Origin: Rhodobium gokarnense
GTDB taxonomy: Bacteria > Pseudomonadota > Alphaproteobacteria > Rhizobiales > Rhodobiaceae
Direction of reading: 5' to 3'
DNA length: 64,000 nucleotides
Assembly: GCF_025961475.1 (NCBI RefSeq)
Contig: NZ_JAOQNS010000009.1
Coordinates: forward strand, 148,587-212,586
This document shows, one piece after another, positions 2,670-19,612 of the stretch. Every line of letters starts with the position of its first letter. Positions within the stretch are counted from its first letter, which is position 1. Both the position numbers and the translations under genes were made by a program. The notes beneath the pieces were generated by a model. It saw only the letters and a program-made list of their open reading frames with translations, did no database searches and was not told where the DNA came from.

Positions 2670-2933
2670 GCCCCCGCCCTCCCATAAATCGAGTTTCGCA
2701 AAATGCGTCCCGGTCTCCTAAAGAAAAGACATTTGATTCAATTGCTTTTATCCCATCGTGGTTTCGACACCAAAATTCCCCGATCAGTACTTTTGCACGA
2801 AGTTACCACGGCGTGCAATCTGGGCGCCATGGAGTGGTCCCGGAAATCCGGACTGGTTGCTAGTGCCACATGGCAAGCTGGGCAAACCCCGTGTTGATGA
2901 CTGGAGTTGCCCCCGTTTCGCCGGACGGTCCGG

Positions 2934-3767: not shown

Positions 3768-3779
3768 CGGGAACCGTCC

Positions 3780-4152: not shown

Positions 4153-4189
4153 AAGCCTGTCCTTGGGGATATCCCCAAGCCTTCTTGCT

Positions 4190-4867: not shown

Positions 4868-4951
4868 GAACGCCGCCGCCTGGAACAACGCGCTGGCCTG
4901 TGGTTCCGACAAAGAGGAGGGCCCCCGCTGGAGAACGTAAAGGGTCAATCA

Positions 4952-5920: not shown

Positions 5921-5965
5921 CGGCCTGAACCGCTCTACACTTGCCGTAGGCGGGTTGATTGAAAG

Positions 5966-5988
5966 TTATTAAGTTATTGACTTAATAA
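5966..5988. repeat. Inverted repeat TTATTAAG-N7-CTTAATAA
   Basis: Perfect 8-base arms (5966-5973 and 5981-5988) around a 7-base AT-rich spacer. It lies just after the broken FGE gene, at the boundary between the decayed accessory segment and the ABC operon. It could be an old operator or the scar of a mobile element; the sequence does not decide. Confidence 0.5.
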
Positions 5989-6003
5989 GATCATTTAGGA
6001 AGC

Positions 6004-6034
6004 GGCGGCGCATCCCTCCGGCTCCGCCATTTTT
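6004..6034 (+). terminator. Weak intrinsic-terminator-like hairpin
   Basis: Five-base arms GGCGG and CCGCC around a 15-base loop, followed by ATTTTT. It could end rightward transcription of the FGE/SelA-like remnants. The stem is short and the loop long, so support is limited. Confidence 0.3.
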
Positions 6035-6095
6035 CAACGCCATGACCGCGACCCAGCGGGCGTGCCGGTCGATCGGGTCCAGCGCCGAACGACGA

Positions 6096-7745
6096 TCAGG
6101 GCTGGGGCGCGGATGTGTCCCGCCCGGGCTTTGCGGAAATCCATGCCCGGCCCGGGATCGATTTGAACAGCGATTGCGTATAGGGGTCCGCGGGGTTCTC
6201 GATGATGTCGGCGGCGGGGCCGTGTTCGACGATCCTGCCGTGGCGCATGACGGCGATGCGGTCGCAGATCTGGGCGGCGACGCACAGATCGTGGGTGATA
6301 AACAGCATCGCCAGTTGCAGCCGGTCGCGGATGTCGGCCAATAGCTTCAGCACCTGGTCCTGCACCGAGACGTCGAGCGCGGAGACCGGCTCGTCGGCGA
6401 TCAGCACTTCCGGGTCGAGGGCGAGCGCGCGGGCGATCCCGATCCGCTGCCGCTGGCCGCCGGAAAACTGGTGCGGAAAGCGCTCCGCCGCCGACGGGTC
6501 CAGACTGACGAGGTCCAGAAGGTCCGCCAGCCGGGCGTCCGCCTCGGCCTTCGAGGCTCCCTGCAGTATCATCCCCTCGGTGATGATCTGGCGCACCTTG
6601 TAGCGCGGATTGAGCGAGGCGAACGGGTCCTGGAAGACCATCTGGATGCGGCGGCGCTGGCCGCGCAGTTGCCGCCCGGAAAGCGCCAGGAAGTCCTCGC
6701 CGTCGAGGGTCACGCTGCCCTTGTCGGCCTCCAGCAGCCGGATGACGAGCCGGGCGAGCGTCGACTTGCCGGACCCGGATTCTCCGACGATGCCGAGGGT
6801 CTCGCCGCGCTTCAGCGACAGCGCGATGTCGTCGACGGCGACCACCTTGCGCTGGCTGCCGAACAGGCTGCTGCCGGAGGAAAAGGTCTTGCCGAGGCCG
6901 GCGGCCTGCAGGACCGTCGCGCCGTAGGCGCCGGTGCGTGCCGCCGTCGGCGTCAGGCTCGGCACCGCCTCGATCAGTGCGCGCGTATAGGCGTGCTGCG
7001 GGCGATAGAGGATGTCCTTCGCCGGCCCGACTTCCAGGAGATTGCCGGACCGCATCACCGCGATCCGGTCGGCGATCTCGGCAACGACGCCGAAATCGTG
7101 GGTGATGAACAGGACGCCGGTGTGGTGCTTCCTCTGGATCTCGGCGATCAGCTTGAGGATCTGCGCCTGGGTGGTGACGTCGAGCGCCGTCGTCGGTTCG
7201 TCGGCGATGATGACGCGCGGCTCCAGCACCAGCGCCATGGCGATCATGGCGCGCTGGCGCTGGCCGCCCGACAACTGGTGCGGATAGGCCGCGTAGATCG
7301 CTTGCGGGTCGGGAAGGTGGACGTCCCTCAGGATCGCGTGGACCTTGTCGCGCCGCAGCCGCGCGGTCAGGCCGGTGTGGACGCGCAGCACCTCGTCGAT
7401 CTGCCGGCCGATGGTCATCAGCGGGTTGAGCGCGGTCATCGGCTCCTGGAAGATCATGGCGATGAGGTTGCCGCGCAACTCGCGCATCGCGTCATCCGAC
7501 ACGGAAAGGAGATCCTGGCCTTCGAAGTGGATTTCGCCGGTCCGCGTGAAGAGGTCCGGCGACGGCAGCAGGCCCATGATGGCGCGCGCCAGCATCGATT
7601 TGCCGGACCCGGATTCGCCGACGACGCAGAGAATCTCGTCGGCGTGCAGATCGAGGTCGATGCCCTCAAGCGCGAACTCCCGCTCGCTGCCGGACGGCAG
7701 CCGGACGCTCAAATCGCGGATCTGGAGGCGCGCGGACCCGGTCAC
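6096..7745 (-). CDS. Peptide/opine-type ABC importer, fused double ATPase
   Basis: This 549-residue cytoplasmic protein contains two complete oligopeptide-type ABC ATPases in tandem (DppD-like then DppF-like). Walker A motifs GESGSGKS are at 43-50 and 321-328; signature motifs LSGGQ and FSGGQ are at 158-162 and 427-431; each has a Walker B ending in ADEP. It powers uptake by the upstream permeases and binding protein. The start is GTG at 7745, overlapping the permease stop by four bases (GTGA), so the two are translationally coupled. It is the last gene of the amidase-SBP-permease-permease-ATPase operon. Fusion of the two ATPases is common in this family. Substrate specificity is not readable. 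Confidence 0.92.
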   Translation of the reverse strand: MTGSARLQIRDLSVRLPSGSEREFALEGIDLDLHADEILCVVGESGSGKSMLARAIMGLLPSPDLFTRTGEIHFEGQDLLSVSDDAMRELRGNLIAMIFQEPMTALNPLMTIGRQIDEVLRVHTGLTARLRRDKVHAILRDVHLPDPQAIYAAYPHQLSGGQRQRAMIAMALVLEPRVIIADEPTTALDVTTQAQILKLIAEIQRKHHTGVLFITHDFGVVAEIADRIAVMRSGNLLEVGPAKDILYRPQHAYTRALIEAVPSLTPTAARTGAYGATVLQAAGLGKTFSSGSSLFGSQRKVVAVDDIALSLKRGETLGIVGESGSGKSTLARLVIRLLEADKGSVTLDGEDFLALSGRQLRGQRRRIQMVFQDPFASLNPRYKVRQIITEGMILQGASKAEADARLADLLDLVSLDPSAAERFPHQFSGGQRQRIGIARALALDPEVLIADEPVSALDVSVQDQVLKLLADIRDRLQLAMLFITHDLCVAAQICDRIAVMRHGRIVEHGPAADIIENPADPYTQSLFKSIPGRAWISAKPGRDTSAPQP

Positions 7746-8575
7746 GACGAGCGCTCCCTGAGGCGCGGGTTGAGGGCGTCGTTGACGCCTTCCCCGATCA
7801 GGTTGATGGCAAGGACGGTGATGAGGATGGCAAGGCCGGGAAAGGTGCACACCCACCAGGCGCTCCTCAGGATCGTCCGTCCGGCGCCGATTAGAAAGCC
7901 CCAGCTCATGACGTTGGGATCGCCGAGGCCGAGGAAGGCGAGGCCCGATTCGATCAGGATCGCCGTCGCGACCATGAGCGAGCCGGCAACGATGATCGGC
8001 GACAGGCAGTTGGGCAGGATCTGCAGGAAGATGATGCGGCCGTGCGACATGCCGAGCGTCAGTGACGCCTGCACGAATTCGCGCGTCTTCAGCGACAGGA
8101 ACTCGCCGCGCACCAGGCGCACCACCGGCGGCCAGGAGACGACCGCGATGGCGATGACGACGGACTGGATGGACGGCGACATGATCGCCACCAAAAGGAT
8201 GGCGAACAGAAACGCAGGGATGGTCTGGAACACCTCGGTAATGCGCATCAGCACGTCGTCGACCCAGCCGCCGAAATAGCCGGCGAGCGCGCCGAGCACG
8301 GTGCCGACCGTCACCGCCATCAGCGAGGCGACGAGGCCGATCATCAGCGATGTGAAGGCGCCGTGGGCAATGCCGGCGGCAACGTCGCGGCCGAGGATGT
8401 CGGTGCCGAACGGATAGTCGAGGGACGGCGGCAGCATCGGCCGGCCGACGAGCCGGAACGGGTCGCCCGGATAAATGACCGGCGCGAGCGCCGCCAGCAG
8501 GATGATGGCGACGAGAAGCGCCAGGCCGATGGCGGCCGAGCGGTTGCGGAAGAAGCGTTTCACGAAGGGGAACAT
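7742..8575 (-). CDS. Peptide-type ABC importer permease, DppC-like
   Basis: The 277-residue inner-membrane permease begins MFPFVKRFFRNRSAAIGLAL. It has the OppC-type N-terminal extension, including PFGTDILGRDV, and about six membrane spans. The coupling loop carries EFVQASLTLGMSHGRIIFLQ, the EAA-like motif that contacts the ATPase. The start at 8575 was chosen because it matches the family N-terminus; the same frame stays open far upstream without homology. Only 14 bases separate it from the DppB-like gene, and its stop overlaps the ATPase start. With DppB it forms the heterodimeric channel. Confidence 0.92.
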   Translation of the reverse strand: MFPFVKRFFRNRSAAIGLALLVAIILLAALAPVIYPGDPFRLVGRPMLPPSLDYPFGTDILGRDVAAGIAHGAFTSLMIGLVASLMAVTVGTVLGALAGYFGGWVDDVLMRITEVFQTIPAFLFAILLVAIMSPSIQSVVIAIAVVSWPPVVRLVRGEFLSLKTREFVQASLTLGMSHGRIIFLQILPNCLSPIIVAGSLMVATAILIESGLAFLGLGDPNVMSWGFLIGAGRTILRSAWWVCTFPGLAILITVLAINLIGEGVNDALNPRLRERSS

Positions 8576-8589
8576 CGCCTGCAGCCTCC

Positions 8590-9564
8590 TCAGCGCACCT
8601 CGATCCGCGGATCGAGGAAGACGTACAGGATGTCGACGACGAGGTTGACGACGACGACGAGGCAGGCCGAGACGAAAAAGATGCCGAGCAGCAGGTTGAT
8701 GTCGCGCGCGAACAGCGCATCGAAGGCGAGCAGCCCGAGGCCCGGCCAGCCGAACACGGATTCCACGATCACCGAGCCGCCGAGCAGCGCTCCCATCTGC
8801 ACGCCGGCCATCGTGACGACCGGCAGCAGCGCGTTGCGAAGAACATGGCGGTAGGTGATCGCCCGTTCCGTCAGGCCCTTGGCGCGCGCCGTGGTGACGT
8901 AGTCCATGCCCGCCTGTTCCAGCATCGAGGCGCGCATCAGGCGCGTATAGGCGGCGAGATAGAACAGCGACAGGGTCGCCGCCGGCAGGATCAGATGCCT
9001 GGCGATATCGACGACCCGGTCCCACCCTTCATAGAAGGCACCGATGGATTCCATGCCGCTCGCCGGCAGCAGGTCGAGGCGGATGGAAAAGACGACGATG
9101 AACATCAGTCCGATCCAGAACAGCGGCGTTGCATAGGAAACGAGCGCGAAGACGGAGATCAGGTTGTCGCGCCAGGTGTTCAGCCCGACCGCGGCCATGA
9201 CGCCGAGCAGGGCACCGACGCCGACGGCAATCACGAGGGTCGCTCCCATCAGCAGCAGGGTCGGCCAGAGCCGGCCGAGGATCAGGTCGGCCACCGGCAT
9301 GTCCTGGCGGAAGGAGTAGCCGAGGTCGAAGGAGAGGATATTGGTGACGTAGTGCAGGAGCTGGAACGCGATCGGCTGGTCGAGCCCGAACCGTTCGCGA
9401 AGCTGGGCGAGATATTCCGGCGTCGCGGACCCCGCCTCACCGGCGAGCACGTCGACGGCGTCCCCTTCGGCAAGCTGCAAAAGCAGGAAATTCAGCACCA
9501 CGATGGCGAGCACCACGGGAATGCTCTGGAGGACGCGGCGCAGGATATACTGGAGCTGTCGCAC
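8590..9564 (-). CDS. Peptide-type ABC importer permease, DppB-like
   Basis: The 324-residue integral membrane protein begins MRQLQYILRRVLQSIPVVLA, the typical first span of OppB/DppB permeases. The periplasmic segment includes LRERFGLDQPIAFQLLHYV, followed by five further spans. The EAA loop is DYVTTARAKGLTERAITYRH. The sequence ends LYVFLDPRIEVR, the usual C-terminus of the family. It follows the binding-protein gene after a 93-base gap that holds a strong hairpin, and is closely spaced with the DppC-like gene. It forms half of the channel. Confidence 0.92.
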   Translation of the reverse strand: MRQLQYILRRVLQSIPVVLAIVVLNFLLLQLAEGDAVDVLAGEAGSATPEYLAQLRERFGLDQPIAFQLLHYVTNILSFDLGYSFRQDMPVADLILGRLWPTLLLMGATLVIAVGVGALLGVMAAVGLNTWRDNLISVFALVSYATPLFWIGLMFIVVFSIRLDLLPASGMESIGAFYEGWDRVVDIARHLILPAATLSLFYLAAYTRLMRASMLEQAGMDYVTTARAKGLTERAITYRHVLRNALLPVVTMAGVQMGALLGGSVIVESVFGWPGLGLLAFDALFARDINLLLGIFFVSACLVVVVNLVVDILYVFLDPRIEVR

Positions 9565-9600
9565 GGATCGAGCCCAATCCCTGGCTGAAGGCGATCTACG

Positions 9601-9638
9601 GGGACGCCGGTGCCGGCACGCGGCCGCACCGGCATCCC
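9601..9638 (-). other. Intercistronic stem-loop after the binding-protein gene
   Basis: Thirteen-base arms GGGACGCCGGTGC (9601-9613) and GCACCGGCATCCC (9626-9638), with one wobble pair, enclose a 12-base loop. No U-run follows. It sits between the SBP and permease genes, a position where such hairpins often protect the SBP part of the transcript, giving more binding protein than channel. Confidence 0.6.
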
Positions 9639-9657
9639 ATGATCGTATCCGGTCCGC

Positions 9658-11250
9658 CTATTTGTCGAGCCAGGCCCGGTCGAACGACGCATAGACGCCG
9701 AGCGGGCTGACGATGGCGTCCTTGACGAAGTCCCGCTGGACCGTGATGAAGTCCATCTCGAACAGCGGGATCACCGGGACGTCCTCGGCCAGGATCTTCT
9801 GGATCTCGGCGTAGAGCTTGCCGCGCGCCTCGCTGTCCGGTTCCGTCGAGGCCTTGTCCATCAGCTCGTCGACGGTCGGATTGCTGTACTGGGCACCGTT
9901 GACGAACACCGTCCCCTTGCGGATCTGGCTGGTCAGATACTGCCGGTGCATGCCGAGCACCGGGTCGGCGAGCTGGTAGAAGAACGTCGAGTTCAGCTGG
10001 TAGTCGTAGTTGGTGTAGATCCGCTTCAGCCAGGTCGGGACGTCTTCGTAGCGCAGCGTCACCTTGATGCCGACTTCGCCGAGCGCCTGCTTGAGGTACT
10101 CGCCGAGGCGCCGCCACGATTCCCCGTAGGGCAGGATGTCGTGCACGATCTCGAACCGCACGCCGTCGGCATCGCGCTTGAAGCCGGCGTCGTCGAGCAG
10201 CTTGTTGGCGATGTCGATGCGGTCCGCCACGGCGTAGTCGCGGACATCGGAGCTATAGAGGCCGACCGATCCGAAGCTCGACAGGATCGAGCCGGTCGCC
10301 GGCTTGCCGAAGCCGAAGAAGATGTTGTCGATGATGAACTGCCGGTCGATGGCATAGGAGATCGCCTGGCGGACGGCACGGTTGTCCAGCGGCGGGCTCT
10401 TGGTGTTGACCTCCAAAAGCATCAGCGGATTGATCATGGTGTAGCCCTCGGTCGTCACCGAGATGCCGTCCATGTCGTCCAGCCGCTTGGCGTCGACGTT
10501 TGGAATGGCGTTGAAGGCCGCGAACTGGACCTCGCCCTTTTCCAGGGCGGCAGTGCGGGTGCCGGCATCGGGAATGAACCGCGCGACGAGGCGGTCGAGG
10601 TGCGGCAGGCCCTCCTTCCAGTAGTTCGGGTTCTTGTCGAGGCGGATATACTGGCCCTTCTGCCACTCCACGAACATGAACGGACCGGTGCCGACCGGCT
10701 TGTTGGCGGTCGGGTTGTCGCGCGGGTCGGTGCCCTCGAACAGCTTCTTGGAGACGATCGGCGACTCGTAGCCGGACAGCGCCCGGATCAGATAGGGCGC
10801 GGCGTTCTTCAGGTGGAAGACGACCGTCAGGTCGTCCGGCGTCTCGATGGACTCCAGTTCCTTGAAGGTGAGGGCGGCGCGGGGATGGACTTTGCGCAGC
10901 ACCTCGTTGATCGAATATTCCACGTCGGCGCTGGTGAACGGCGTGCCGTCGTGGAACGTGACGCCTTCCTGCAGCTTGAAGGTCATGGTCTTGCCGTCGT
11001 CGCTGATCTCCCAGGACTTGGCGAGGCCGGGCTGCGGATTGAGGTCGAAGTCGTATTCCAGGAGGCCTTCATAGACCTTGGTGGAGACCTGGCCGATCGG
11101 GCCGGAGGTCGACAGATAGGAGGCCAGCGTCGGAGGCTCCGGCTTGACCAGCATGATCAGCGTGCCGCCATCCTTGGCGGCCATGGCGTTCGCGGATAGC
11201 AAGAGCAGTGCGGAAAGGGCCGCACCAAGACATGTTATCAGCCGTCTCAT
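9658..11250 (-). CDS. ABC importer periplasmic substrate-binding protein, family 5
   Basis: This 530-residue SBP_bac_5 protein has a Sec signal peptide (hydrophobic LGAALSALLLLSANAMAA, cleavage near 24). The mature part follows the peptide/nickel-binding pattern: LIMLVKPEPPTLASYLS, a GLLEYDFDLNPQPGLAKSWE segment, the conserved KLQEGVTFHDGTPFTSADVE signature, and PNYWKEGLPHLDRLV. It captures the substrate in the periplasm for the downstream permeases. The ligand may be an amide, short peptide or opine, given the amidase encoded just upstream, but that is inference. The start is the ATG giving the signal peptide. Confidence 0.92.
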   Translation of the reverse strand: MRRLITCLGAALSALLLLSANAMAAKDGGTLIMLVKPEPPTLASYLSTSGPIGQVSTKVYEGLLEYDFDLNPQPGLAKSWEISDDGKTMTFKLQEGVTFHDGTPFTSADVEYSINEVLRKVHPRAALTFKELESIETPDDLTVVFHLKNAAPYLIRALSGYESPIVSKKLFEGTDPRDNPTANKPVGTGPFMFVEWQKGQYIRLDKNPNYWKEGLPHLDRLVARFIPDAGTRTAALEKGEVQFAAFNAIPNVDAKRLDDMDGISVTTEGYTMINPLMLLEVNTKSPPLDNRAVRQAISYAIDRQFIIDNIFFGFGKPATGSILSSFGSVGLYSSDVRDYAVADRIDIANKLLDDAGFKRDADGVRFEIVHDILPYGESWRRLGEYLKQALGEVGIKVTLRYEDVPTWLKRIYTNYDYQLNSTFFYQLADPVLGMHRQYLTSQIRKGTVFVNGAQYSNPTVDELMDKASTEPDSEARGKLYAEIQKILAEDVPVIPLFEMDFITVQRDFVKDAIVSPLGVYASFDRAWLDK

Positions 11251-11299
11251 TGTTCACTCCTCTGAAGTCCGGTGAAGGTGCGGCTTTGTTTGGCCGCTT

Positions 11300-12721
11300 T
11301 TATTGGCCCTTCGGGTGCGAGGGCATCTTGAACGGGAATTTTTCCTCGTAGGCCTTGGCGGCGCGCAGCACGAGGGCGTCGCCCTCCATCGGTCCGACGA
11401 TCTGCAGGCCGATCGGCAGGCCGTCGGAGGTGAAGCCGCAGGGGATCGAGCAAGCGGGCTGCTGGGTGAGGTTGAACGGGTAGCTGAACGCCGCCCATTC
11501 GGTCCAGCGCTTGCATCCGCTGCCCTCCGGCACTTCCAGGCCGGCCGTAAACGGGCGGATCGGCACCGACGGGGTGATCAGGAGATCGTAGGTGTCGAGG
11601 AACTGCCGCATGGTCCGGCCGAGGACGGCGCGCGCGTCGACGGCCGTCATGTAGTCGAGGAGGGAGTAGCCGCGCGCCTCCTCGATGATTTCGGCAAGGC
11701 CAGGGTCGAGCTCCTTCAGCGCATCGCCCGAGACGTCGCGACAGCGGTTCAGGGCGCCGGCGAACCAGTGCTTGTGAAAGGTGTCGAGCGGGCAGGCGAA
11801 GCCCGGATCGACCGTCTCGACGGTCGCGCCCATGCGCCCGAATTCGGCGACGGCCGCGGCGACGGCGGCGGCGATTTCCGGATCGACATTGACATAGCCG
11901 AGGTCGGGGCTGTAGGCGATCCGCAGCCCGCGAACGCCGTCATTGAGCCCGGCGCACGGATCGAAATCCCTGTCGATGCGGGAATACCAGTCGCGGCCGT
12001 CCGGCCGGGAAAGGATCTTCAGCATGATGGCGAGATCGTCGACGGTGCGGGCCATCGGCCCGACATGGGCGACGGTGCCGAAGGCGCTCTGGGGATAGGC
12101 CGGCACACGGCCGAAACTCGGCTTGATGCCGGCGATGCCGGTAAAGGCTGCGGGCACGCGGATCGAGCCGCCGCCGTCGGTGCCCACATGCAGCGCCCCC
12201 ATGCCGAGGGCCGCGGCGACCGCGGCGCCGCCGCTGCTGCCGGCAGGCGTCTTCGACAGGTCCCAGGGATTGCGGGTGATGCCGTTCCGCGGCGAGTCGG
12301 TCAGCGCCTTCCAGCCGATCTCCGGCGTCTGCGTGATGCCGATGACAATGGCGCCGGCCTCCTTCAGGCGTGCCACGCAGGGCGAATCCTCGGTGGCGGC
12401 CTCCGCCATGTCGAGGACCCGGCTGCCATAGGTGGTGGCATGGCCCTTGATCAGGACGATGTCCTTGATGGTGACGGGCACGCCGTCGATCGGGCTCAGC
12501 GGCGTGCCGGCGCGCCAGCGCTCCTGCGATGCCCCGGCGGCACTGAGCGCGGCCTCCCGGTCGTGGGCGACGAAGGCATTGACGGCGGCATCGAACGCAT
12601 CGATGCGTTCGAAGGAAGCGGTCACGGCATCGGCGGGTGTGAGCGATCCGGCCTTGAACAGCCTGCCGAGATCGGTGGCGGAAAGGTTCGCAATATCAAC
12701 GCCGTCGGCCGGCCGGTCCAT
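11300..12721 (-). CDS. Amidase-signature family hydrolase
   Basis: This 473-residue cytoplasmic enzyme belongs to the amidase signature superfamily, which hydrolyses amides with a Ser-cisSer-Lys triad. K86 lies in VPVTIKDIVLI. The glycine/serine signature is TPAGSSGGAAVAAALGMGA, with S162/S163, and TDGGGSIRVPAAFTG supplies the nucleophile S186. There is no signal peptide, so it probably acts on imported substrate. It heads the operon, 49 bases before the SBP gene, and is divergent from a LysR gene. Relatives include 6-aminohexanoate-cyclic-dimer hydrolase, indoleacetamide hydrolase and GatA; lack of neighbouring gatB or gatC argues against GatA. Confidence 0.9.
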   Translation of the reverse strand: MDRPADGVDIANLSATDLGRLFKAGSLTPADAVTASFERIDAFDAAVNAFVAHDREAALSAAGASQERWRAGTPLSPIDGVPVTIKDIVLIKGHATTYGSRVLDMAEAATEDSPCVARLKEAGAIVIGITQTPEIGWKALTDSPRNGITRNPWDLSKTPAGSSGGAAVAAALGMGALHVGTDGGGSIRVPAAFTGIAGIKPSFGRVPAYPQSAFGTVAHVGPMARTVDDLAIMLKILSRPDGRDWYSRIDRDFDPCAGLNDGVRGLRIAYSPDLGYVNVDPEIAAAVAAAVAEFGRMGATVETVDPGFACPLDTFHKHWFAGALNRCRDVSGDALKELDPGLAEIIEEARGYSLLDYMTAVDARAVLGRTMRQFLDTYDLLITPSVPIRPFTAGLEVPEGSGCKRWTEWAAFSYPFNLTQQPACSIPCGFTSDGLPIGLQIVGPMEGDALVLRAAKAYEEKFPFKMPSHPKGQ

Positions 12722-12807
12722 ATCCAGATCATCCCCTCGTGGAAAGCTTGCGCCGGCTTTGCGGCGTCATTGGGTGGCGCCCTTGGGTGCGCCCCGAGCG
12801 ATAGCCT

Positions 12808-12838
12808 ACCCACGGGTGGATAAAAGGGATAATATATT
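12808..12838. promoter_or_regulatory. Divergent amidase/lysR control region
   Basis: The 145-base gap between the amidase and lysR starts contains a short palindromic core ACCC-AC-GGGT (12808-12817), followed by the AT-rich GGATAATATATTTAATC, which could hold a -10 element for lysR. LysR regulators usually bind such divergent gaps. The match is short, so this is tentative. Confidence 0.35.
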
Positions 12839-12866
12839 TAATCGCTGTAGTTCCTCGGATTTTTAG

Positions 12867-13796
12867 ATGAATCTTTCCGTCCGGCAGCTCAATTACGTCC
12901 TGACCGCCGCCCGGCTGCGCAGCATCAGCAAGGCGGCGGAGAGCCTCCACATCTCCCAGTCGTCGGTGTCCAGCGCGATCAACAAGCTGGAGGCCGGGTT
13001 CAACGTCACGATCTTCGTGCGCCAGCAGTCGAAGGGGCTGATCGTCACCGCGGTCGGCGCGGAGGTGCTCGGGCGGATCGGCCGCTTGCTTTCGGAAATC
13101 GACAGCTTCGAGGAGGACCTGTCGGGGTTCGGCCAGGCCCTGGAGGGGACGATCAATGTCGGCTGCTTTGCGCCCGTGTCGCCGCATTTCCTGCCGACGA
13201 TCATCAGCGATGTGTCGCGGCAATATCCGAAGGTGCAGGTGAACCTGCACGAAGGCGACCTGCAGCAGGTGCAGGAGTTCCTGCGCGACGGCACCGCCGA
13301 TATCGTCCTGACCTACGATCTCGGCATCCGCCACCCGTTCAAGACGGAGGCCTTGACCGCGGTGCCGCCGCATGTGGTGCTCGCCCGCAACGATCCGCTG
13401 GCCGGGCGGCGCACCGTCTCGCTCGCCGAGATGATGGACCGCCCGATGATCCTTCTCGACCTGCCGGAATCGCGCACCTATTTCGAACTGCTGTTCGACA
13501 CGGTCGGCGCCCATCCGCGCATCGTCTATCGGACGATGACCTATGAAATGGTGCGCAGCCTGGTGGCGACGGGGCTCGGCTTCAGCGTGCTGAACTTAAG
13601 GCCGGTGACCGAGCACACCTATATCGGCGAGGACGTCGTCTGCCTGCCGATCCGCGAGCGGGTCCTGGCGCCGAACATCATCCTCGCCCGCCGCGCGCAC
13701 GATTTCACGACCCGCCTGATGCGCGCCTTTTCCGACGCCTGCCGGGACTATTTCCGGTCAGACCTGGCAGCGAAGCATATCGTGCTGCGCAGGTGA
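12867..13796 (+). CDS. LysR-family transcriptional regulator, likely of the amidase/ABC operon
   Basis: The 309-residue protein has the LysR winged helix-turn-helix at 1-60 (LRSISKAAESLHISQSSVSS and KLEAGFNVTIFVRQQSKGL). Its substrate-binding domain is at about 90-300 (EGTINVGCFAPVSPHFLPTI, LARNDPLAGRRTVSLAEM). It is divergent from the amidase gene, the usual layout for a LysR regulator and its target operon. The inducer is probably the imported amide or its product. The ATG at 12867 gives the standard LysR N-terminus. Family is certain; target is inferred from position. Confidence 0.9.
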   Translation: MNLSVRQLNYVLTAARLRSISKAAESLHISQSSVSSAINKLEAGFNVTIFVRQQSKGLIVTAVGAEVLGRIGRLLSEIDSFEEDLSGFGQALEGTINVGCFAPVSPHFLPTIISDVSRQYPKVQVNLHEGDLQQVQEFLRDGTADIVLTYDLGIRHPFKTEALTAVPPHVVLARNDPLAGRRTVSLAEMMDRPMILLDLPESRTYFELLFDTVGAHPRIVYRTMTYEMVRSLVATGLGFSVLNLRPVTEHTYIGEDVVCLPIRERVLAPNIILARRAHDFTTRLMRAFSDACRDYFRSDLAAKHIVLRR

Positions 13797-14253
13797 GACA
13801 GCGCCGCTGGATATCGGTCCTTCACATGCCGCCCGCTTAGTGGCAGCTTCGGGTCGCGAACCGCCCGACATCACCAGTGATTGCAAACGGCATTTCGCGG
13901 AGGAACGCCCGAGGCACCCCGGGCTCTTCCGCCGGCGCCTTTCCGAGAGTGCGGGCGAGAGGTTTCTTTGTCGGATAAGCAAGACACCGTTGCTCAGGTC
14001 TGCAGATCTGTCATCGACAGATCGTATGACACAATTTTGAATAAACAGAAGTTGTCCCGGAATAATTTGAACATCAATTGCCTAACTATTTGAGGAAAAA
14101 CATATTTATTAAATTAGTCAGCAAGAAAAGAATTCGTAAAACTGAAATCGATCACGAAGCGATCCAAAAAAGCTTCCAAAAGACCTTAACTCGAGTATAA
14201 TTCCGGAAAAAATAGTAAAAGTGTCATACTTGCTACGGCTTCGGGAGGAGTGA
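13797..14253. other. 457-base intergenic region, AT-rich right half, with cassette promoter
   Basis: No gene is visible. The left half (to about 13980) has ordinary GC. The right half is markedly AT-rich, unlike the flanks. It contains a perfect inverted repeat GATCTGTC-ATC-GACAGATC (14005-14023) and leads into the subtilase gene. The composition step suggests the left boundary of a horizontally acquired cassette lies near 13980-14030. Confidence 0.6.
14196..14201 (+). promoter_or_regulatory. Candidate -10 element TATAAT for the protease cassette
   Basis: A consensus TATAAT lies 52 bases before the subtilase ATG, in the AT-rich leader. The best -35 (TTCCAA, 16-base spacing) is weak. A strong ribosome site GGGAGGAG lies three bases before the ATG at 14254. 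Confidence 0.45.
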
Positions 14254-15819
14254 ATGAATCGAAAATCTGAAATTCGCAGCCGTCTTGCGCAGATGGAAGA
14301 ACTCGTCGGCGTATTGCCGACCCGTTTCGAGGCCTCCGAAGGCATGGGCCGCGTAGCATCCAGCCTCAAAGAAAGCGACGTGGAAACCGCACTGACGGCA
14401 TCACGTCAACAACTTGAAATGGTGACCATCGACACTCCGGTTAAGGACACGGCTCCTGAACTCTACGAAGACCCGGCATTGCGAGAGCAGATGGCTGGGT
14501 TCGCGGCCGCCGGGGTCAACTTCTTCCATAGCGACGAAGCCTTCTGGCAAATGTCCCCCGCCGAGCGCGGCGCCCGCGGCGGGAACGGCATAGTGAACCG
14601 TGTTTTCGTCGAGAATCAACGCGTCATGCTGGTGACGTCCCGGATCGTGATCCGCCTGGAAGAGGATGTGTCCGATGCCGCCCGCGATGCGGTTCTGGTC
14701 CGGCACCCCGTGACGATACTGGGCAGGAACGGCCTGCCGCCGCGTAGCTTCAGGGCCGATGTGCAGGGAACGAACGCGCTTGAGGCCTGTCTTGCGCTCA
14801 TGGCGGAAAAGGAGATTGAGTACGCCGAGCCCGACTTCGTCGAACATATTGGTCCGCGCTTGACGCCTTCGGACCCGGAATTCGGCCAGCAATGGCACCA
14901 CGGCAATATTCGCGCCGAGGCTGCCTGGGATGAGACGCAAGTCGCGGGCGTGAGGATTGCGGTAATCGACAACGGTTTCGATATCACCCACCCGGACCTC
15001 CGCTTCGGCGACGCGTCGGGATGGTTCCGATCGACGGCGGATTTTGTCGATGCCGATTTCGTTCTCGGAACGGCGAATATGCCGAACGGGAATCACGGCA
15101 CGGCCTGTGCCGGCATGATCGCGGCGATCGCGAACAACGATAGTGGCGGTTGCGGCGTCGCCTATGGTGCCGACCTCAGCATGGTGGCTTGCCTCCCCGA
15201 TCAGATCGGCACGCAGGCGACGCTGGCGCGTGCGATCGGCTATGCCGCCGATCCGTCACTCGAAGGCCGCACGGAGGAGGGCGCCGACATCGTCGCCTGT
15301 TCGCTCGGCCCGAACAGCGCCGTCTGGACGATGAGCGCGGTCCTCGACGACGCCATCGATTTCGCGGCGACGAAGGGTGGGGGCGGCAGCGGCTGCGCTA
15401 TCTTCTGGGGGTGCACCAACGGCAACCACCCGATCGAGTCCGATCAGGTCTGCTCCCATCCGCAGGTAATGGCCATCGGTCGGTCCACCCACTCGGACTC
15501 GGACCACGGGTCCGGCTTCGGACCGAAGCTGGAATTTCTCGCTCCGGGCGTCGATGTCTGGATTCCGGCCAGCGGCGGCGGCTACCACACGACGACCGGT
15601 ACGAGTTTCGCCGCCCCTTGTGCGGCGGGAATCGGTGCGCTGGCGCTATCGAAAAAGCCCGATATGACGGCGGGTGAACTGCGGCAGCTTCTTCGCGATA
15701 CCTGTGACAAGGTTGGTCCGCTCTCCTACATAGAAGGCCACAACATCCGGTTCGGCCACGGTCGCGCAAACGCCGAAACCGCGGTGTCAGAGGCAACAAG
15801 GCTTGCGACCGGGGTTTGA
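14254..15819 (+). CDS. Cytoplasmic subtilisin-like serine protease (S8) with N-terminal prodomain
   Basis: This 521-residue subtilase has all catalytic elements: D239 in AVIDNGFD, H281 in NGNHGTACAG, the oxyanion Asn in WGCTNGN (about 391) and S451 in TTTGTSFAAPCAAG. The N-terminal 200 residues include a fervidolysin-type prodomain at about 128-198 (SRIVIRLEEDVSD to EIEYAEPDFVEHI). No signal peptide or membrane span is present, so it should act inside the cell, which is unusual for a subtilase with a propeptide. It heads a three-gene cassette; the next gene starts 16 bases later and resembles this protein's own N-terminal half. A housekeeping role cannot be excluded, but isolation and context favour a conflict system. 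Confidence 0.9.
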   Translation: MNRKSEIRSRLAQMEELVGVLPTRFEASEGMGRVASSLKESDVETALTASRQQLEMVTIDTPVKDTAPELYEDPALREQMAGFAAAGVNFFHSDEAFWQMSPAERGARGGNGIVNRVFVENQRVMLVTSRIVIRLEEDVSDAARDAVLVRHPVTILGRNGLPPRSFRADVQGTNALEACLALMAEKEIEYAEPDFVEHIGPRLTPSDPEFGQQWHHGNIRAEAAWDETQVAGVRIAVIDNGFDITHPDLRFGDASGWFRSTADFVDADFVLGTANMPNGNHGTACAGMIAAIANNDSGGCGVAYGADLSMVACLPDQIGTQATLARAIGYAADPSLEGRTEEGADIVACSLGPNSAVWTMSAVLDDAIDFAATKGGGGSGCAIFWGCTNGNHPIESDQVCSHPQVMAIGRSTHSDSDHGSGFGPKLEFLAPGVDVWIPASGGGYHTTTGTSFAAPCAAGIGALALSKKPDMTAGELRQLLRDTCDKVGPLSYIEGHNIRFGHGRANAETAVSEATRLATGV

Positions 15820-15834
15820 GCCAAGCGAGGAGCC

Positions 15835-16341
15835 ATGGACAAAGCGACCGTTATTCATCGTCTGACCCAGATCAGGAAGGTCGAGAACGTCAGCGCGGTT
15901 CCTCCCGGAGCCGCGCCGTCCGGCGCCGGAGTTGCCGCGGCCGAGGCGGAAGATGTTCAGCGCCGGCTGGAAGGCGCGTCGAACGAAGCGAAGGACGATC
16001 TGCGGCTGCTGCAGGAGGCGGGCTGGACCTTCGGAGCTCCGGAACAGGCGCCTCCCGGTGCGGCGTTCGATGTGCTGATGGATGCCGACGGCCATTTGAA
16101 GCTGGCCGGACGCGCGCTGGTCGCCAAGATCGATCCAACCCTCGACCGCACGGCAGTCGAGGCGCTTCTGTCGCGCACGGGCATGAACCTGCGTCGTGAG
16201 TTGGGTTTTGCGCCCAACACCTTTCTGCTCGAGGCGCAGGACGGATCCGCCCTGAATGCCGCAAGGACGCTCAACGAGCTGCAGGAAATACTTTACGCGG
16301 AACCGAGCCTGGTGGAGCCGATACAGTCGCGCGAGGATTAG
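15835..16341 (+). CDS. Stand-alone subtilase-prodomain-like protein, candidate inhibitor or chaperone
   Basis: The 168-residue protein has no catalytic residues. Residues 93-163 (ALVAKIDPTLDRTAVEALL to EILYAEPSLVEPI) line up with prodomain residues 130-198 of the subtilase encoded upstream, sharing the YAEPx[FL]VE ending. The short helical N-terminus (MDKATVIHRLTQIRKVENVS) also resembles that protease's (MNRKSEIRSRLAQMEELVGV). Subtilase propeptides fold and inhibit their protease, so a free copy could silence it until a signal arrives. No signal peptide is seen. The ribosome site is GCGAGGAGCC before the ATG. The inhibitor role is inference; the resemblance is visible by eye and should be tested by profile alignment. 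Confidence 0.75.
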   Translation: MDKATVIHRLTQIRKVENVSAVPPGAAPSGAGVAAAEAEDVQRRLEGASNEAKDDLRLLQEAGWTFGAPEQAPPGAAFDVLMDADGHLKLAGRALVAKIDPTLDRTAVEALLSRTGMNLRRELGFAPNTFLLEAQDGSALNAARTLNELQEILYAEPSLVEPIQSRED

Positions 16342-16377
16342 TCGCGGTTTTCGTTCCGTTCGATGTTGGAGATGGCA

Positions 16378-19068
16378 ATGGAGCCTTTGTCAGTCGAGCA
16401 ACTGAAGCGAGTGTCGGCCGCTTATCGCGAACTGATCAAGATCCATCCGGAACTGGAGTTGCGGCCGGCACGGTCGAACGGGATGGCGACCCGGGCTTCC
16501 GACGGTCTGGGCAAGGTGGTGCGAAGCGCGCTGCCGGCCGAGAGCGACGCGGCGGTGGCGCGGGTCGTGAACGAACTCGTCGCCTTGTCGCAAGGACGCC
16601 CGGCTATCCTGATTAGACACGACGATTTCGACCTTACGCCCCACGAAGCCCTGCCCGACGTCCTGTCGAACCTGCTTAAGCAGAACCGCGCCGCGCTCCG
16701 CACCGCAATCCGCGGGGTCGGCCGAATCGAGGTATCGAACCATCCCTTGCGGTCATGGATCGGCACCGGATTCGTCGTAGCCTCTCCGCGCGGCGATGCC
16801 ATCGTCGTGACCAACCAGCATGTCGCCGCTGAGCTGGCGTTTCGCCGGGATGACGGGACGTTTTCCTTTGTCGAGGGACTTGAGGACGGCAGTCCCGTTG
16901 CCGCTTCGCTGGACATGGGCGAAGAAGTATCCAGCGTCTCGGGCGACAATTCGCTCACGGTCCCGATCGCCGAAGTCCTGCACATCGAAGCCGGCGGCGG
17001 GCCGGACATCGCGCTGCTGCGACTGGTGGACAGTGCGGCCACAGATGCGCTTCCGCGCATGAATTTGGCCGAAGGGTCCGGCAACGGCACCCCCGTGGCG
17101 GCGATCGGCTACCCGGCGAGGGACACGCGCGAGACCGATCTGAACGTCGTGCTCGATCTCCTCGGCGATGTGTTCAACAAGAAACGGCTCGCACCCGGCA
17201 TCCTGAAGGAGGTGATGGACCGGCGTCTGTCGCATGACTGTTCGACGCTCGGAGGCAATTCCGGCTCGCCGCTGGTGGATCTCCGGTCCGCAACGGTCGT
17301 CGGTCTACACTATGGCGGCACGTTTCCCAATCCGATCAACCACGCGGTCCCGGCGCGGATCATCGCTGACAGGCTGGCGGAAAGCGCCCGTCCCGTCCGG
17401 CGCCCTCCGGCCGATGTGATCAAAGAGGGAGGTGGAAAGGTCATGGTACCGGTTCCGGGCAGTCGGACGCTTACCGTCGAGGTTCCGCTGCGTATCACCG
17501 TCGAGATCGGCGAGCCCGCAGGCGCTGCGTCACCGCGTTCGATCGATGTGGCCGTCGACAGTGCGAATCAGGCCTACGCCGGCATGCCGGGTGTCGTGGC
17601 CGTGCGCCGCGGCATCGTCGTGTCGAACGGGCAGTACACGAACGATCCGGCCGTGATCGTCGCCATCGATTATCTCAAGCCCGGTGCCGAAGCGACGATC
17701 GCCGCTCTGCCGGCCACCCGGGACGGTTTTCCCCTGCAGGTCCGCGCGGCGACGGCAGAAGAATTGCTGCGGGTTCACCGAAGCCTCGCGGTGGAGGCCG
17801 TGCCACGCATCAACTACGTCGTGCCGCAAGATCTGTCGCTCGACCCGGTGGACGAAGAGATGTTCGCGGTCTTCCACGTCAGTCCGGATGCGGGCTGGCC
17901 GCAACTGCGGGAGTTCCTCGAACGCACCAACGAGACCTTGACGCTTGGCCTTTACAATTTTGCCACCGACCATGTCCGCCGGGTGCTCGAACAAGCCGTT
18001 GCGCCCGAACCGAAGACATTCGACCTCGTCCTCGGCGACGCTGCGATCGACCGGGAGGACACCAAGGAGTTCGAAGAAGAGCTGGTCGATGATTTCAGCG
18101 CGCTGATGGGCGACCGGTTCCGCTGCGAGCTGGCGGATGGGCAGCGCCGGTTGTTTGCGGGACACTACCACATCAAGGTCGCCATTCGGGACAGCGAGGC
18201 ATTTTGGCTCTCCAGCGGCAACTGGGAGCCGTCGAACCAGCCGGAGGTCGACCCTGTCGCCACCGGTGAGACCGGATTTGGCCTATTGCGCGACAGAAAC
18301 CGCGAATGGCACGCTATCGTCCTCAACAGGCAACTCGCCGAGACGTTCGAAAAGTACATCCGCTACGATCTCGACTCATATCGCGAGATTCGCACCGGCG
18401 TGCGCGAACTGCCGCCTGGGCTCGACATGCCGATGGTATTGGTACCGAGAGCGACCACCATTCAGGAACGATCGCCCGGCGAGGCCAGGTATTTCGCACC
18501 CCTCGTGGTGAACCGTCGCCTGAAGATCCAGCCGCTCCTGACGCCGGACAATTTCATCGGCCACGTGCAGGCGCTGGTCGATTCGGCGACGTCGTCGATC
18601 GACCTCCAGAACCAGACGTTGAAATGGCGGCATAACAACGTCGATCCGAGGTTCGAACGGCTGATGAATACGATCCTCGACAAGCACCGCAATGGGGTAG
18701 CGGTCCGATTCATCCTGCGCGGTGATTTCTCGCCGGAGATGAAAGAGCTTCTGGTCGAGCACGGTTTCGATCCTGGCCAGATCCGGTTGATCAGCCGGTG
18801 CCACACAAAGGGAATGATCGTCGACGGCAGGCGTGTCCTGTTGGGCAGCCACAATCTCAGCGAACATGGTGCAATCGTGAACCGCGATGCCAGCTTGATC
18901 GTGGACGACGAGGAAGTGGCGCAGTATTTCGCCCGGATATTCCAGTTCGACTGGAACCGCGCCTCCTCGCGGGTCCACGAAACGCCGCCGGGCATCATTC
19001 TGCATCACCGCGGCGATGCTGTTCCCGAAGGCTACGAGGTAGTTCCGCTGATGGATATCGCGGTTTGA
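16378..19068 (+). CDS. Trypsin-like protease fused to twin-HKD phospholipase D/nuclease
   Basis: This 896-residue cytoplasmic protein combines two enzymes. A helical N-terminus (1-110) precedes a trypsin-like domain with H148 (VVTNQHVA), D210 (PDIALLRL) and S295 (LGGNSGSPLVD). A region of unknown fold follows (360-480). Then come two complete PLD motifs: H598-x-K600-x4-D605, followed by SSGN, and H809-x-K811-x4-D816, followed by GSHN. Twin HKD sites form one phosphodiesterase centre, acting on DNA, RNA or phospholipid. The start at 16378 has GGAG at a suitable distance; an upstream in-frame ATG at 16363 lacks one. It closes the subtilase/prodomain cassette. A proteolytically activated nuclease is the attractive hypothesis. 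Confidence 0.85.
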   Translation: MEPLSVEQLKRVSAAYRELIKIHPELELRPARSNGMATRASDGLGKVVRSALPAESDAAVARVVNELVALSQGRPAILIRHDDFDLTPHEALPDVLSNLLKQNRAALRTAIRGVGRIEVSNHPLRSWIGTGFVVASPRGDAIVVTNQHVAAELAFRRDDGTFSFVEGLEDGSPVAASLDMGEEVSSVSGDNSLTVPIAEVLHIEAGGGPDIALLRLVDSAATDALPRMNLAEGSGNGTPVAAIGYPARDTRETDLNVVLDLLGDVFNKKRLAPGILKEVMDRRLSHDCSTLGGNSGSPLVDLRSATVVGLHYGGTFPNPINHAVPARIIADRLAESARPVRRPPADVIKEGGGKVMVPVPGSRTLTVEVPLRITVEIGEPAGAASPRSIDVAVDSANQAYAGMPGVVAVRRGIVVSNGQYTNDPAVIVAIDYLKPGAEATIAALPATRDGFPLQVRAATAEELLRVHRSLAVEAVPRINYVVPQDLSLDPVDEEMFAVFHVSPDAGWPQLREFLERTNETLTLGLYNFATDHVRRVLEQAVAPEPKTFDLVLGDAAIDREDTKEFEEELVDDFSALMGDRFRCELADGQRRLFAGHYHIKVAIRDSEAFWLSSGNWEPSNQPEVDPVATGETGFGLLRDRNREWHAIVLNRQLAETFEKYIRYDLDSYREIRTGVRELPPGLDMPMVLVPRATTIQERSPGEARYFAPLVVNRRLKIQPLLTPDNFIGHVQALVDSATSSIDLQNQTLKWRHNNVDPRFERLMNTILDKHRNGVAVRFILRGDFSPEMKELLVEHGFDPGQIRLISRCHTKGMIVDGRRVLLGSHNLSEHGAIVNRDASLIVDDEEVAQYFARIFQFDWNRASSRVHETPPGIILHHRGDAVPEGYEVVPLMDIAV

Positions 19069-19195: not shown

Positions 19196-19612
19196 TCACA
19201 TCTGGCCCGGGAAGATCGCCCTCGTGATGAGATAGCCGGCAAGGGCCGAGACGCCGGTCAGCACCGTGCCCCAGACGATGTCGACGGCGGTGATGATGAC
19301 CGGCCAGTTCTTCAGCGTCGCGTAGTTGGTCATGTCGTAGGTGGCGTAGGCGAAAAAGCCGAACAGCGCGCCGTAAAGGGCGGCGGTCGTGGCGCCGCCG
19401 GGACCCTTCAGCGCTGGAGCGACGGCGAAGATGACGATGCCGACGACGTAGACCGCATAGAAGAGCGCCGCCGCGCCCATCTTCGGCTTGTCGAGGACCA
19501 TGTCGCCGAGGCGGTCGAAATAGAAGCTCTTGGCGACCCTCGACAACCAGACGTAGTCTATTCCCAGAAACACGATCGCGGTGACGACATAGGCGGTGAC
19601 CATGCGGGCCAT
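19196..19612 (-). CDS. DUF2177 family membrane protein
   Basis: The 138-residue protein has four membrane spans. It starts MARMVTAYVVTAIVFLGIDY and contains VWLSRVAKSFYFDRLGD and GFFAYATYDMTNYATLKNW, the conserved DUF2177 pattern. The start at 19612 has GGAGGAGAGG seven bases upstream. The biochemical function of the family is not known. It is divergent from the FAD oxidoreductase/CFA operon, and both directions carry a TGATCC-N18-TA promoter, which suggests joint control as part of a membrane or photo-oxidative stress response. Confidence 0.85.
   Translation of the reverse strand: MARMVTAYVVTAIVFLGIDYVWLSRVAKSFYFDRLGDMVLDKPKMGAAALFYAVYVVGIVIFAVAPALKGPGGATTAALYGALFGFFAYATYDMTNYATLKNWPVIITAVDIVWGTVLTGVSALAGYLITRAIFPGQM

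What the first reader, a model, noticed from the sequence alone, without database searches (positions are those of the whole stretch)
14254..19068. Three-gene subtilase / free prodomain / trypsin-PLD cassette, possible new defence system
Seen: a cytoplasmic subtilase with a complete triad, a small protein resembling its own N-terminal prodomain, and a trypsin-like protease fused to two intact HKD motifs, tightly spaced (16 and 36 bases) after an AT-rich promoter region and inserted between unrelated metabolic genes. Known: proteases and PLD nucleases occur in bacterial conflict systems, and subtilase propeptides inhibit their proteases. Inference: the subtilase, held by the free prodomain, is released by infection, processes the trypsin-PLD protein, and unleashes a nuclease or phospholipase. 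I know no named system with this exact gene set.
Basis: partly seen in the sequence, partly recalled or inferred. Interest (0 to 1): 0.85.

Follow-up and report, generated by a model that had tools for sequence, protein, structure and literature searches.

The report
Subtilase, free prodomain, trypsin-PLD operon
Three adjacent bacterial genes encode an intracellular subtilisin-type protease, a separate copy of the prodomain that normally restrains such proteases, and a protease fused to a phospholipase-D-type enzyme; similar sets recur in other bacteria and look like a variant of known protease-cascade conflict systems, with function untested.

Summary
Three co-directional genes encode an S8 subtilase without visible export signal (D239/H281/S451), a 168-aa protein with a subtilase-prodomain fold, and a trypsin-PLD fusion with intact motifs. 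The middle protein is a genuine free prodomain: a Marinovum plasmid carries the S8/free-prodomain pair (68% and 55% identity); profile comparison with the subtilase's own prodomain gives E 2e-7; the model's best structural matches are subtilase propeptides.

The set is not unique. S8 – small gene – PLD recurs with a second, sequence-unrelated small protein, also modelled as a prodomain, in Rhizobium, Agrobacterium, Variovorax and Schlegelella; a third type follows S8 in Asticcacaulis and in a gene run with trypsin-PLD in strain M00.F.Ca.ET.205. PLD is not obligatory: four S8/small-gene pairs have none nearby. The trypsin half is homologous to trypsin-endonuclease proteins like those of Kaur et al. 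2020 'System 3', a predicted proteolytic-cascade conflict system. I call this a new variant of a known kind: PLD replaces NucA, and a free prodomain, probably inhibitory, is added. Infection-triggered defence is unproven; no sensor was identified and no defence-gene enrichment was tested.

The parts
13970..14253 (+). AT-rich leader (37.7% GC) before the operon, one sigma-70-like match at 14037-14066
   Evidence: promoter match no better than chance
14254..15819 (+). S8 subtilase (P0001, 521 aa), triad D239/H281/S451, oxyanion N391
14581..14862 (+). the subtilase's own N-terminal prodomain (about residues 110-203); the mature enzyme starts near residue 204 by match to thermitase
   Evidence: borders approximate
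15835..16341 (+). free prodomain protein (P0002, 168 aa)
16096..16332 (+). prodomain core of P0002 (residues 88-166, beta-alpha-beta-beta-alpha-beta) with product-like C-terminal tail
16363..19068 (+). trypsin-PLD fusion (P0003, 901 aa); likely true start at 16378
16762..17307 (+). trypsin-like peptidase domain (residues 134-315; H153, D215, S300)
17524..17802 (+). domain in front of the PLD part (about residues 388-480), shared with trypsin-less PLD relatives; NAL1_N-like in one relative (below cut-off)
18169..18192 (+). first HKD motif (HIKVAIRD)
18574..18954 (+). PLDc_2 domain with second HKD motif (HTKGMIVD at 18802-18825)
19207..19207 (.). point from which the window is syntenic (89% identity) with a congener that lacks the cassette at this place

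Best explanation
A protease-gated effector operon of the trypsin/subtilase conflict type. Shown: P0002 is a free subtilase prodomain homologous to the prodomain of the neighbouring subtilase; the S8/free-prodomain pair is conserved in Marinovum; PLD proteins lie directly behind S8/small-gene pairs in several other bacteria; active-site residues of the trypsin and PLD parts are kept in relatives. Inferred: P0001 matures by cutting off its own prodomain; P0002 then sits in the same active-site cleft in trans, with its C-terminal tail (IQSR-ED) lying where the cut end of the own prodomain (IGPR) lay, and keeps the mature protease silent, perhaps also helping it fold. When P0002 is lost (the trigger is unknown; it could be short-lived and vanish when translation stops), the subtilase acts on P0003, either freeing the PLD part from the trypsin part or switching on the trypsin, and the freed hydrolase damages nucleic acid or membranes and stops the cell.
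For: Prodomain identity: hhalign E 2.1e-7; the free-protein profile also finds the prodomain of a Leisingera caerulea subtilase, E 2.8e-6; Foldseek hits 1-4 are PC1/3 prodomains (E 2.4e-4 to 3.4e-3); VIA-align rows 1-7 are subtilase prodomains, one of them in an unprocessed proprotein, best 3whi_B Z 8.8, rmsd 2.4, 63 aligned. Maintained, not decaying: Marinovum copy 55% identical, dN 0.31 against dS 0.86. Recurrence: S8 - 85-aa-type protein - PLD in L005, L009, L010, L052, L062, L063, L184; that small protein also models as a subtilase propeptide (VIA rows 1-21 are subtilase entries, many of them the same Tk-subtilisin propeptide; best Z 7.6, rmsd 2.5, 58 aligned). A third small-gene type follows S8 in L070 (PLD next) and in L088, where the run is trypsin-PLD, M15-type gene, S8, small gene. 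Trypsin kinship: 36% over 322 residues to a P. aeruginosa plasmid trypsin-endonuclease protein; S8 and a trypsin of this family fused in one 930-aa R. phaseoli protein, followed by a trypsin gene and an AAA gene. 28 of 80 PLD loci have a further S8, trypsin, caspase or M12 gene within 10 kb; a small control of 8 stretches, 7 of them chosen for S8, had one caspase-type and no trypsin-type hit. Catalytic residues: trypsin H/D/S in 40 of 40 fusions; HKD1 H and K in 80 of 80, its D in 64 of 80; HKD2 in 80 of 80, but loci were partly picked by that motif. P0001 matches the PADLOC model 'subtilase' (E 1e-12) and P0003 'nacht' (E 1.7e-13); what systems these models stand for I did not check.
Against: S8/small-gene pairs exist without PLD nearby in Marinovum L171, G597 L183, Azospirillum L188 and Rhizobium TH2 L189, so PLD is not needed for the pair. 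72 of 80 PLD loci have no S8 within 10 kb at my threshold (several contigs are shorter than that). No infection sensor was identified among the three proteins. No complex between P0002 and P0001 was modelled. The second and third small-gene types are not linked to their own S8 prodomains by sequence at a convincing level (P 0.003 and 0.21), the second has no Foldseek hit below E 0.05, and the third type's fold was not predicted. A terminator-like site lies between genes 2 and 3 (16330-16346), at chance level. In LypABC the endonuclease half is dispensable (PMC13236601, section 9 read), so the PLD half here may not be the killer.
Confidence: 0.45

Rival explanations
1. P0002 is mainly a folding helper for the subtilase, as ORF2 is for Aeromonas sobria serine protease; the pair is a housekeeping or nutritional protease, and the trypsin-PLD gene is an independent neighbour.
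For: [quoted passage not shown] the ASP:ORF2 complex 3wqb_B is among the matches (Z 7.1, rmsd 4.5, 89 aligned); the pair stands without PLD in Marinovum, between dehydrogenase and beta-galactosidase genes.
Against: ASP lacks its own propeptide (title of its reference 17 seen), whereas P0001 has one; ASP is secreted, and no secretion signal was seen here; S8 - small gene - PLD recurs with different small-gene families, which an accidental neighbour would not predict.
Confidence: 0.25
2. The set works as an addiction or stress module of the toxin-antitoxin type: P0002 is the labile antitoxin, the subtilase (with or without PLD) the toxin, and phage infection is not the specific trigger.
For: The S8/small-gene/PLD sets found outside the genome scan are on plasmids, though that collection holds only plasmids; the pair occurs without PLD.
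Against: The cassette here lies in a 5.1 Mb assembly on a contig that continues into DNA syntenic with a congener, not on a recognisable plasmid; no toxicity data.
Confidence: 0.17
3. No functional link: three genes thrown together in a strain-variable stretch.
For: The stretch left of 19207 has no match in the corresponding region of a congener, and third-position GC of the three genes (0.74-0.77) differs from two flanking genes (0.88-0.89); close homologues of the whole set were not found.
Against: Tight spacing, and recurrence of the same three kinds of gene in other lineages.
Confidence: 0.1

Closest known systems
Kaur et al. 2020 'System 3' (peptidases coupled to NucA-like endonuclease), PMC7159879, section 32 read in full, other passages seen
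   Same: Mostly alphaproteobacterial; trypsin-like peptidase fused to a hydrolytic effector; S8 peptidase sometimes present; predicted proteolytic cascade. The trypsin half of P0003 is homologous to that of plasmid proteins annotated as DNA/RNA non-specific endonucleases.
   Different: PLD in place of NucA (no PF01223 in the host genome); a separate free prodomain gene, not mentioned in that section.
CARD-NLR systems and Caulobacter LypABC, PMC13236601, abstract and section 9 read, other passages seen
   Same: LypC is an N-terminal trypsin-like domain plus C-terminal endonuclease, the layout of P0003 with another effector; P0003 residues 14-320 match the PADLOC model named 'nacht' (E 1.7e-13).
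   Different: No LypA- or LypB-like ATPase is part of this three-gene set.
Aeromonas sobria ASP with its external chaperone ORF2, PMC5638518, passages read
   Same: Subtilase gene followed by a gene for a prodomain-fold protein (3wqb_B) whose C-terminus blocks the active site.
   Different: ASP is secreted and lacks its own propeptide; P0001 has one and shows no export signal.
SUB1-ProM of Plasmodium (PMC6993865, abstract and outline read) and POIA1 (structures 1v5i, 1itp)
   Same: Stand-alone propeptide-like protein; SUB1-ProM inhibits SUB1, a subtilase that has its own propeptide.
   Different: Eukaryotic; no PLD partner known to me.
HamMAB, AVAST and canu nuclease-protease pairs (Tuck et al. 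2025, PMC12799240, abstract and passages read)
   Same: Protease-activated effector in antiphage defence.
   Different: MBL-fold nuclease there; PLD and S8 here.

Membership tests
Subtilase prodomain (Fervidolysin_NPro / I9-like) | ferredoxin-like propeptide fold and homology to a subtilase prodomain | tested here: met
   Marinovum orthologue over Pfam cut-off, window copy below it
Subtilase prodomain (Fervidolysin_NPro / I9-like) | binds and inhibits the cognate subtilase | not tested
   no complex prediction or assay run
Kaur 2020 System 3 | trypsin-like peptidase of the NucA-associated kind | tested here: met
   the nuclease partners are NucA-type by annotation only
Kaur 2020 System 3 | NucA (Endonuclease_NS) domain as core effector | tested here: not met
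   PLD instead; PF01223 absent from host genome, 0 of 1
Kaur 2020 System 3 | S8 peptidase as occasional partner | tested here: met
   S8-trypsin fusion in L014
Kaur 2020 System 3 | EAD1 or Death-like domain on a component (only in a subset) | tested here: inconclusive
   no such Pfam match in the three proteins at E 1; the N-terminal 125 residues of P0003 were not modelled
CARD-NLR / LypABC | NLR-type ATPase gene in the operon | tested here: not met
   no ATPase domain in the three genes or in the tested adjacent LysR and DUF2177 genes
ASP-ORF2 external chaperone pair | prodomain-fold protein encoded just downstream of the subtilase | tested here: met
ASP-ORF2 external chaperone pair | subtilase lacks its own propeptide | tested here: not met
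   own prodomain at about residues 110-203
Two-HKD phospholipase D superfamily | two HKD motifs with H, K and following N | tested here: met
   relatives: HKD2 in 80 of 80 (loci partly picked by that motif), HKD1 H and K in 80 of 80, D in 64 of 80
Established antiphage system | phage protection or enrichment among defence genes | not tested
   no assay and no enrichment statistic; a SIR2_2 gene and a GmrSD/DUF262-like gene lie 11.6 and 21 kb away

The most novel reading that the evidence does not exclude
Bacteria repeatedly and independently split off free prodomains as separate genes behind intracellular subtilases (two sequence-unrelated types supported by fold here, a third and fourth suspected), creating inhibitor-gated proteases that work like toxin-antitoxin pairs and are often wired to a PLD effector: a general 'protease plus free propeptide' switch for programmed cell arrest.
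Probability: 0.33. Interest if true: 0.78.

Novelty: new variant of a known kind. Interest (0 to 1): 0.6.

Why it matters
Proteolytic switches are a growing theme in bacterial immunity, but how the proteases are kept off is often unclear. A dedicated free prodomain beside an intracellular subtilase would give a simple, testable answer and link bacterial systems to the way eukaryotic subtilases are restrained. It also adds a PLD branch to the trypsin-NucA conflict family and a search rule: look for a small gene right behind an intracellular S8 gene.

Tried and rejected
Viral origin: P0003 and the PLD alignment found no confirmed relative in viral contigs (0 of 1 and 0 of 14 candidate stretches) and P0003 none in phage records. 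PHROGs matched only the subtilase, to a protease family.

Window prodomain as orthologue of the 85-aa type: no profile similarity; nor between the 85-aa type and P0001, the 85-aa type and L070's small protein, or the S8 prodomains of the 85-aa group and P0001. Proving the 85-aa and 113-aa types as prodomains by sequence: weak (P 0.042; 0.003 and 0.21); only the 85-aa type was then modelled. The 75-aa ORF behind S8 in Ensifer L040 looks like a prodomain by eye only; Pfam gave nothing relevant.

Clean insertion site: not obtained; only the right edge aligns to a congener.

Read-through of the in-frame TGA between P0001 and P0002: considered, because both genes share a frame, but the Marinovum pair does not (coordinates); not pursued.

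Solved-structure search with the prodomain profile A4: nothing relevant. NCBIfam: no match over a cut-off. Only 80 of 272 PLD relatives were examined, near-identical ones not merged. ORF calling in loci was mechanical, so spacing and neighbour lengths there are approximate. In the neighbour count hits with E above 1e-5 were not counted. Weak P0002 matches were dropped: 4 genomes at E 0.005-0.009 and Celeribacter at E 0.4.

Literature: ten searches of the held PMC library listed no paper that I could recognise as describing S8 plus free prodomain plus PLD; mostly titles and abstract starts were seen (ranked 36,787 papers and listed 12), and the CARD-gasdermin paper of 2025, known to me from recall, is not held.

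Full report
What is there. Three co-directional genes lie at 14254-19068 on the + strand: an S8 subtilase (521 aa), a 168-aa protein and a 901-aa trypsin-PLD fusion. The gaps are 15 bases and 21 bases (36 if the third gene starts at ATG 16378, which has a GGAG at better distance). The S8 motif residues are D239, H281, N391 and S451, and the HKD motifs start at residues 603 and 814 of the third protein. The subtilase matches mature thermitase-like enzymes from residue 204 on, so about 200 residues precede the catalytic domain. None of the three proteins shows a long hydrophobic stretch.

The middle gene is a free prodomain. A direct BLASTP with the subtilase gives E 2e-5. The strongest evidence came from Marinovum algicola plasmid pMaD2, which carries a 68%-identical subtilase followed at once by a 55%-identical copy of the small gene. 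With these two pairs, profile comparison of the free proteins with the subtilase N-termini gives probability 93.6 and E 2.1e-7 over 83 columns, ending at the point where the catalytic domain begins. The free-protein profile also finds the prodomain of a Leisingera caerulea subtilase (E 2.8e-6). The Marinovum free protein passes Pfam's cut-off for Fervidolysin_NPro-like; the window copy does not. The AlphaFold2 model of P0002 (two-row alignment; mean pLDDT 60.5, block means 72-86 over residues 91-160, best of five models, the others 37-54) has the beta-alpha-beta-beta-alpha-beta order of subtilase propeptides. Foldseek hits 1-4 are PC1/3 prodomains; unrelated ferredoxin-like folds (ribosomal protein S6, RRM) follow among further propeptides. 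VIA-align rows 1-7 are subtilase prodomains (3whi_B Z 8.8; 1spb_P 8.2; 1scj_B and 3cnq_P 8.0), row 8 is the ORF2 chaperone of A. sobria protease (Z 7.1), and POIA1 follows at 6.6. The lower of these Z values are shared with unrelated folds and prove little alone. The tails agree: own prodomain ...EHIGPR then LTPSD, free protein ...EPIQSRED end; Marinovum ...EHIGQR then LTPND, free ...EAMQTRR end. dN 0.31 and dS 0.86 between the two free proteins indicate a maintained gene (simple counting method).

The third gene belongs to a wide family. tblastn of P0003 found 38 plasmid records, mostly rhizobial (30 were listed), in three forms: trypsin-PLD, PLD without trypsin, and trypsin in proteins annotated as DNA/RNA non-specific endonucleases. 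A scan of the genome collection with the PLD part gave 272 relatives, of which 80 were kept, from Alpha- and Betaproteobacteria, Bacteroidota, Planctomycetes, Chloroflexi, Acidobacteria and others by their record titles. In 40 of 80 a trypsin domain lies in the same ORF. In those 40 the trypsin H, D and S are all kept; of the first HKD motif H and K are kept in 80 of 80 and D in 64; H, K, D and N of the second are kept in 80 of 80, but the scan used that motif as one of its two patterns. No relative was confirmed in viral contigs or phage records. Full-length relatives are rare near the host: in 385 class genomes 4 had a match at E 1e-10, only the host's own being full-length, and in 101 relatives 5 matched at E 1e-5, one of them (G422) nearly full-length at 35%.

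Does the gene set recur? Yes, with qualifications. Seven records show S8 - 85-aa-type protein - PLD in that order: A. leguminum p4 (L005), A. salinitolerans (L062), Rhizobium TH2 (L009), R. leguminosarum WSM1325 (L010), R. etli Mim1 (L184), Variovorax boronicumulans (L052) and Schlegelella koreensis (L063). These were found through the PLD part or through the 85-aa protein, so they are not an unbiased sample. The 85-aa protein shows no sequence relation to P0002, and its link to the prodomain of its own S8 is weak (P 0.003 over 59 columns), but its model (block pLDDT 88-92 over residues 31-80) has subtilase entries in VIA rows 1-21, many of them the same Tk-subtilisin propeptide (best 2z58_B, Z 7.6, rmsd 2.5, 58 aligned; row 22 is a 'PAM Protease' chain I did not check, row 23 the unrelated NapD), and 8 of Foldseek rows 1-9 are subtilase propeptides or proproteins (the ninth is the PAM Protease chain), although no Foldseek E-value is below 0.05. 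A third small-gene type follows S8 in Asticcacaulis L070 (with PLD next), in L088 (run: trypsin-PLD, M15-type gene, S8, small gene), in Azospirillum lipoferum L188 and at a second place in Rhizobium TH2, L189; its fold was not predicted and sequence does not prove it a prodomain (P 0.21; one member has a weak Inhibitor_I9 match, E 0.14). In L040 (Ensifer adhaerens) a 75-aa ORF overlaps the S8 stop; its prodomain look is by eye. Within the 80 genome loci, 8 have an S8 gene within 10 kb of PLD, and 5 of these 8 carry a small gene of the second or third type behind S8 (the profiles were built from four of these five).

Is PLD needed? No. Queries with the free proteins, which do not depend on PLD, give the less biased view. 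P0002 in plasmids: Marinovum as the only strong hit, without PLD (the gap behind the pair contains a transposase-like tail, recognised from recall, so a third gene may have been lost). The 85-aa protein in plasmids: 5 records, 4 with S8 and PLD (one is the query's own record), 1 orphan between transposases in Leisingera M658. The same profile in 369 genomes of the phylum: 1 match, G597, with S8 in front and a transporter gene behind, no PLD. The 113-type in plasmids: 2 records, both with S8, neither with PLD in the annotated stretch. Together 4 of 9 have PLD.

Surroundings. Upstream lie a LysR gene and, on the other strand, an amidase and peptide-transporter genes; downstream is a DUF2177 gene. 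In a congener (G386) DNA from window 19207 rightward is 89% identical for about 9.3 kb, to the end of the stretch fetched, and nothing to the left aligns there. Window 1-14253 has no long syntenic match in two congeners; one 90% match (2901-4193) covers a transposase-type gene, the rest are mostly 65-80% matches scattered over many contigs, as expected of transporter paralogues. Third-position GC of the three genes is 0.74-0.77 against 0.88-0.89 for LysR and the downstream FAD gene. The cassette thus sits at the edge of a strain-variable stretch. A SIR2_2 gene and a GmrSD/DUF262-like gene are in the window but 11.6 and 21 kb away; I made no test that would call this a defence island. The host genome has 3 caspase-type matches, 2 S8 matches and no NucA match.

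How it most likely works. Known parts: subtilase prodomains help fold, then inhibit, their proteases; SUB1-ProM is a stand-alone inhibitor of SUB1 (abstract), and ORF2 blocks ASP with its C-terminus (IC50 84 nM; passages). The trypsin half belongs with trypsin-endonuclease proteins of the kind for which Kaur et al. proposed a proteolytic cascade (section 32 read), and in R. phaseoli L014 an S8 and a trypsin of this family are one protein, next to a trypsin gene and an AAA gene. I infer that P0002 restrains P0001, and that P0001, when freed, acts on P0003. The trigger, the cut site and the PLD substrate are unknown. LypABC warns that the peptidase half, not the fused nuclease, may matter most (section 9 read).

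Verdict. Observation confirmed; interpretation partly supported; new variant of a known kind. What is new, as far as the searches named under Tried and rejected can tell, is the recurrent small, prodomain-type gene behind intracellular subtilases and its repeated pairing with PLD.

Noticed in passing
window:357-2669 (-): SIR2_2-domain protein (E 2.6e-8) with weak PADLOC matches to SIR2-type and pAgo models, 11.6 kb left of the cassette.
   Followed up: partly
window:2901-4193: Transposase-type gene (HTH_21, rve in ORF 3225-3767) with a 90% identical copy on another contig of a congener.
   Followed up: partly
window:40137-41804 (+): 555-aa protein matching PADLOC HEC-06, Orf5 and SspE models, best E 1.9e-47; 'GmrSD/DUF262-like' is from recall.
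   Followed up: no
window:15817-15834: The subtilase stop (TGA) and the small gene are in one frame, five codons apart; the Marinovum pair is not, so read-through is unlikely to be conserved.
   Followed up: partly
L014:4159-12397: R. phaseoli plasmid operon: S8-trypsin fusion, trypsin-like protein, AAA ATPase; looks like a CARD-NLR-type relative.
   Followed up: partly
L189:1-4800: Rhizobium TH2 S8 annotated over 4956 bases, followed by a 113-type small gene, about 8 kb from an S8 - 85-aa - PLD operon on the same plasmid.
   Followed up: partly
L182:5950-6216: Leisingera M658: 85-aa-type free protein with no S8 found within the 12 kb stretch, transposase genes nearby.
   Followed up: no
L040:15598-17213: Ensifer adhaerens S8 gene overlapping (ATGA) a 75-aa ORF that looks by eye like a further prodomain type, about 4 kb from a trypsin-PLD gene.
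   Followed up: partly
L010:5974-7578: The region in front of the PLD part resembles the plant NAL1_N domain (E 8e-4, below cut-off).
   Followed up: no
L002, L007, L008 (plasmids): Trypsin-PLD proteins with long further N-terminal regions and, just upstream, caspase-type genes plus M12 metallopeptidase (L002, L008) or alpha/beta-hydrolase (L007) genes.
   Followed up: partly
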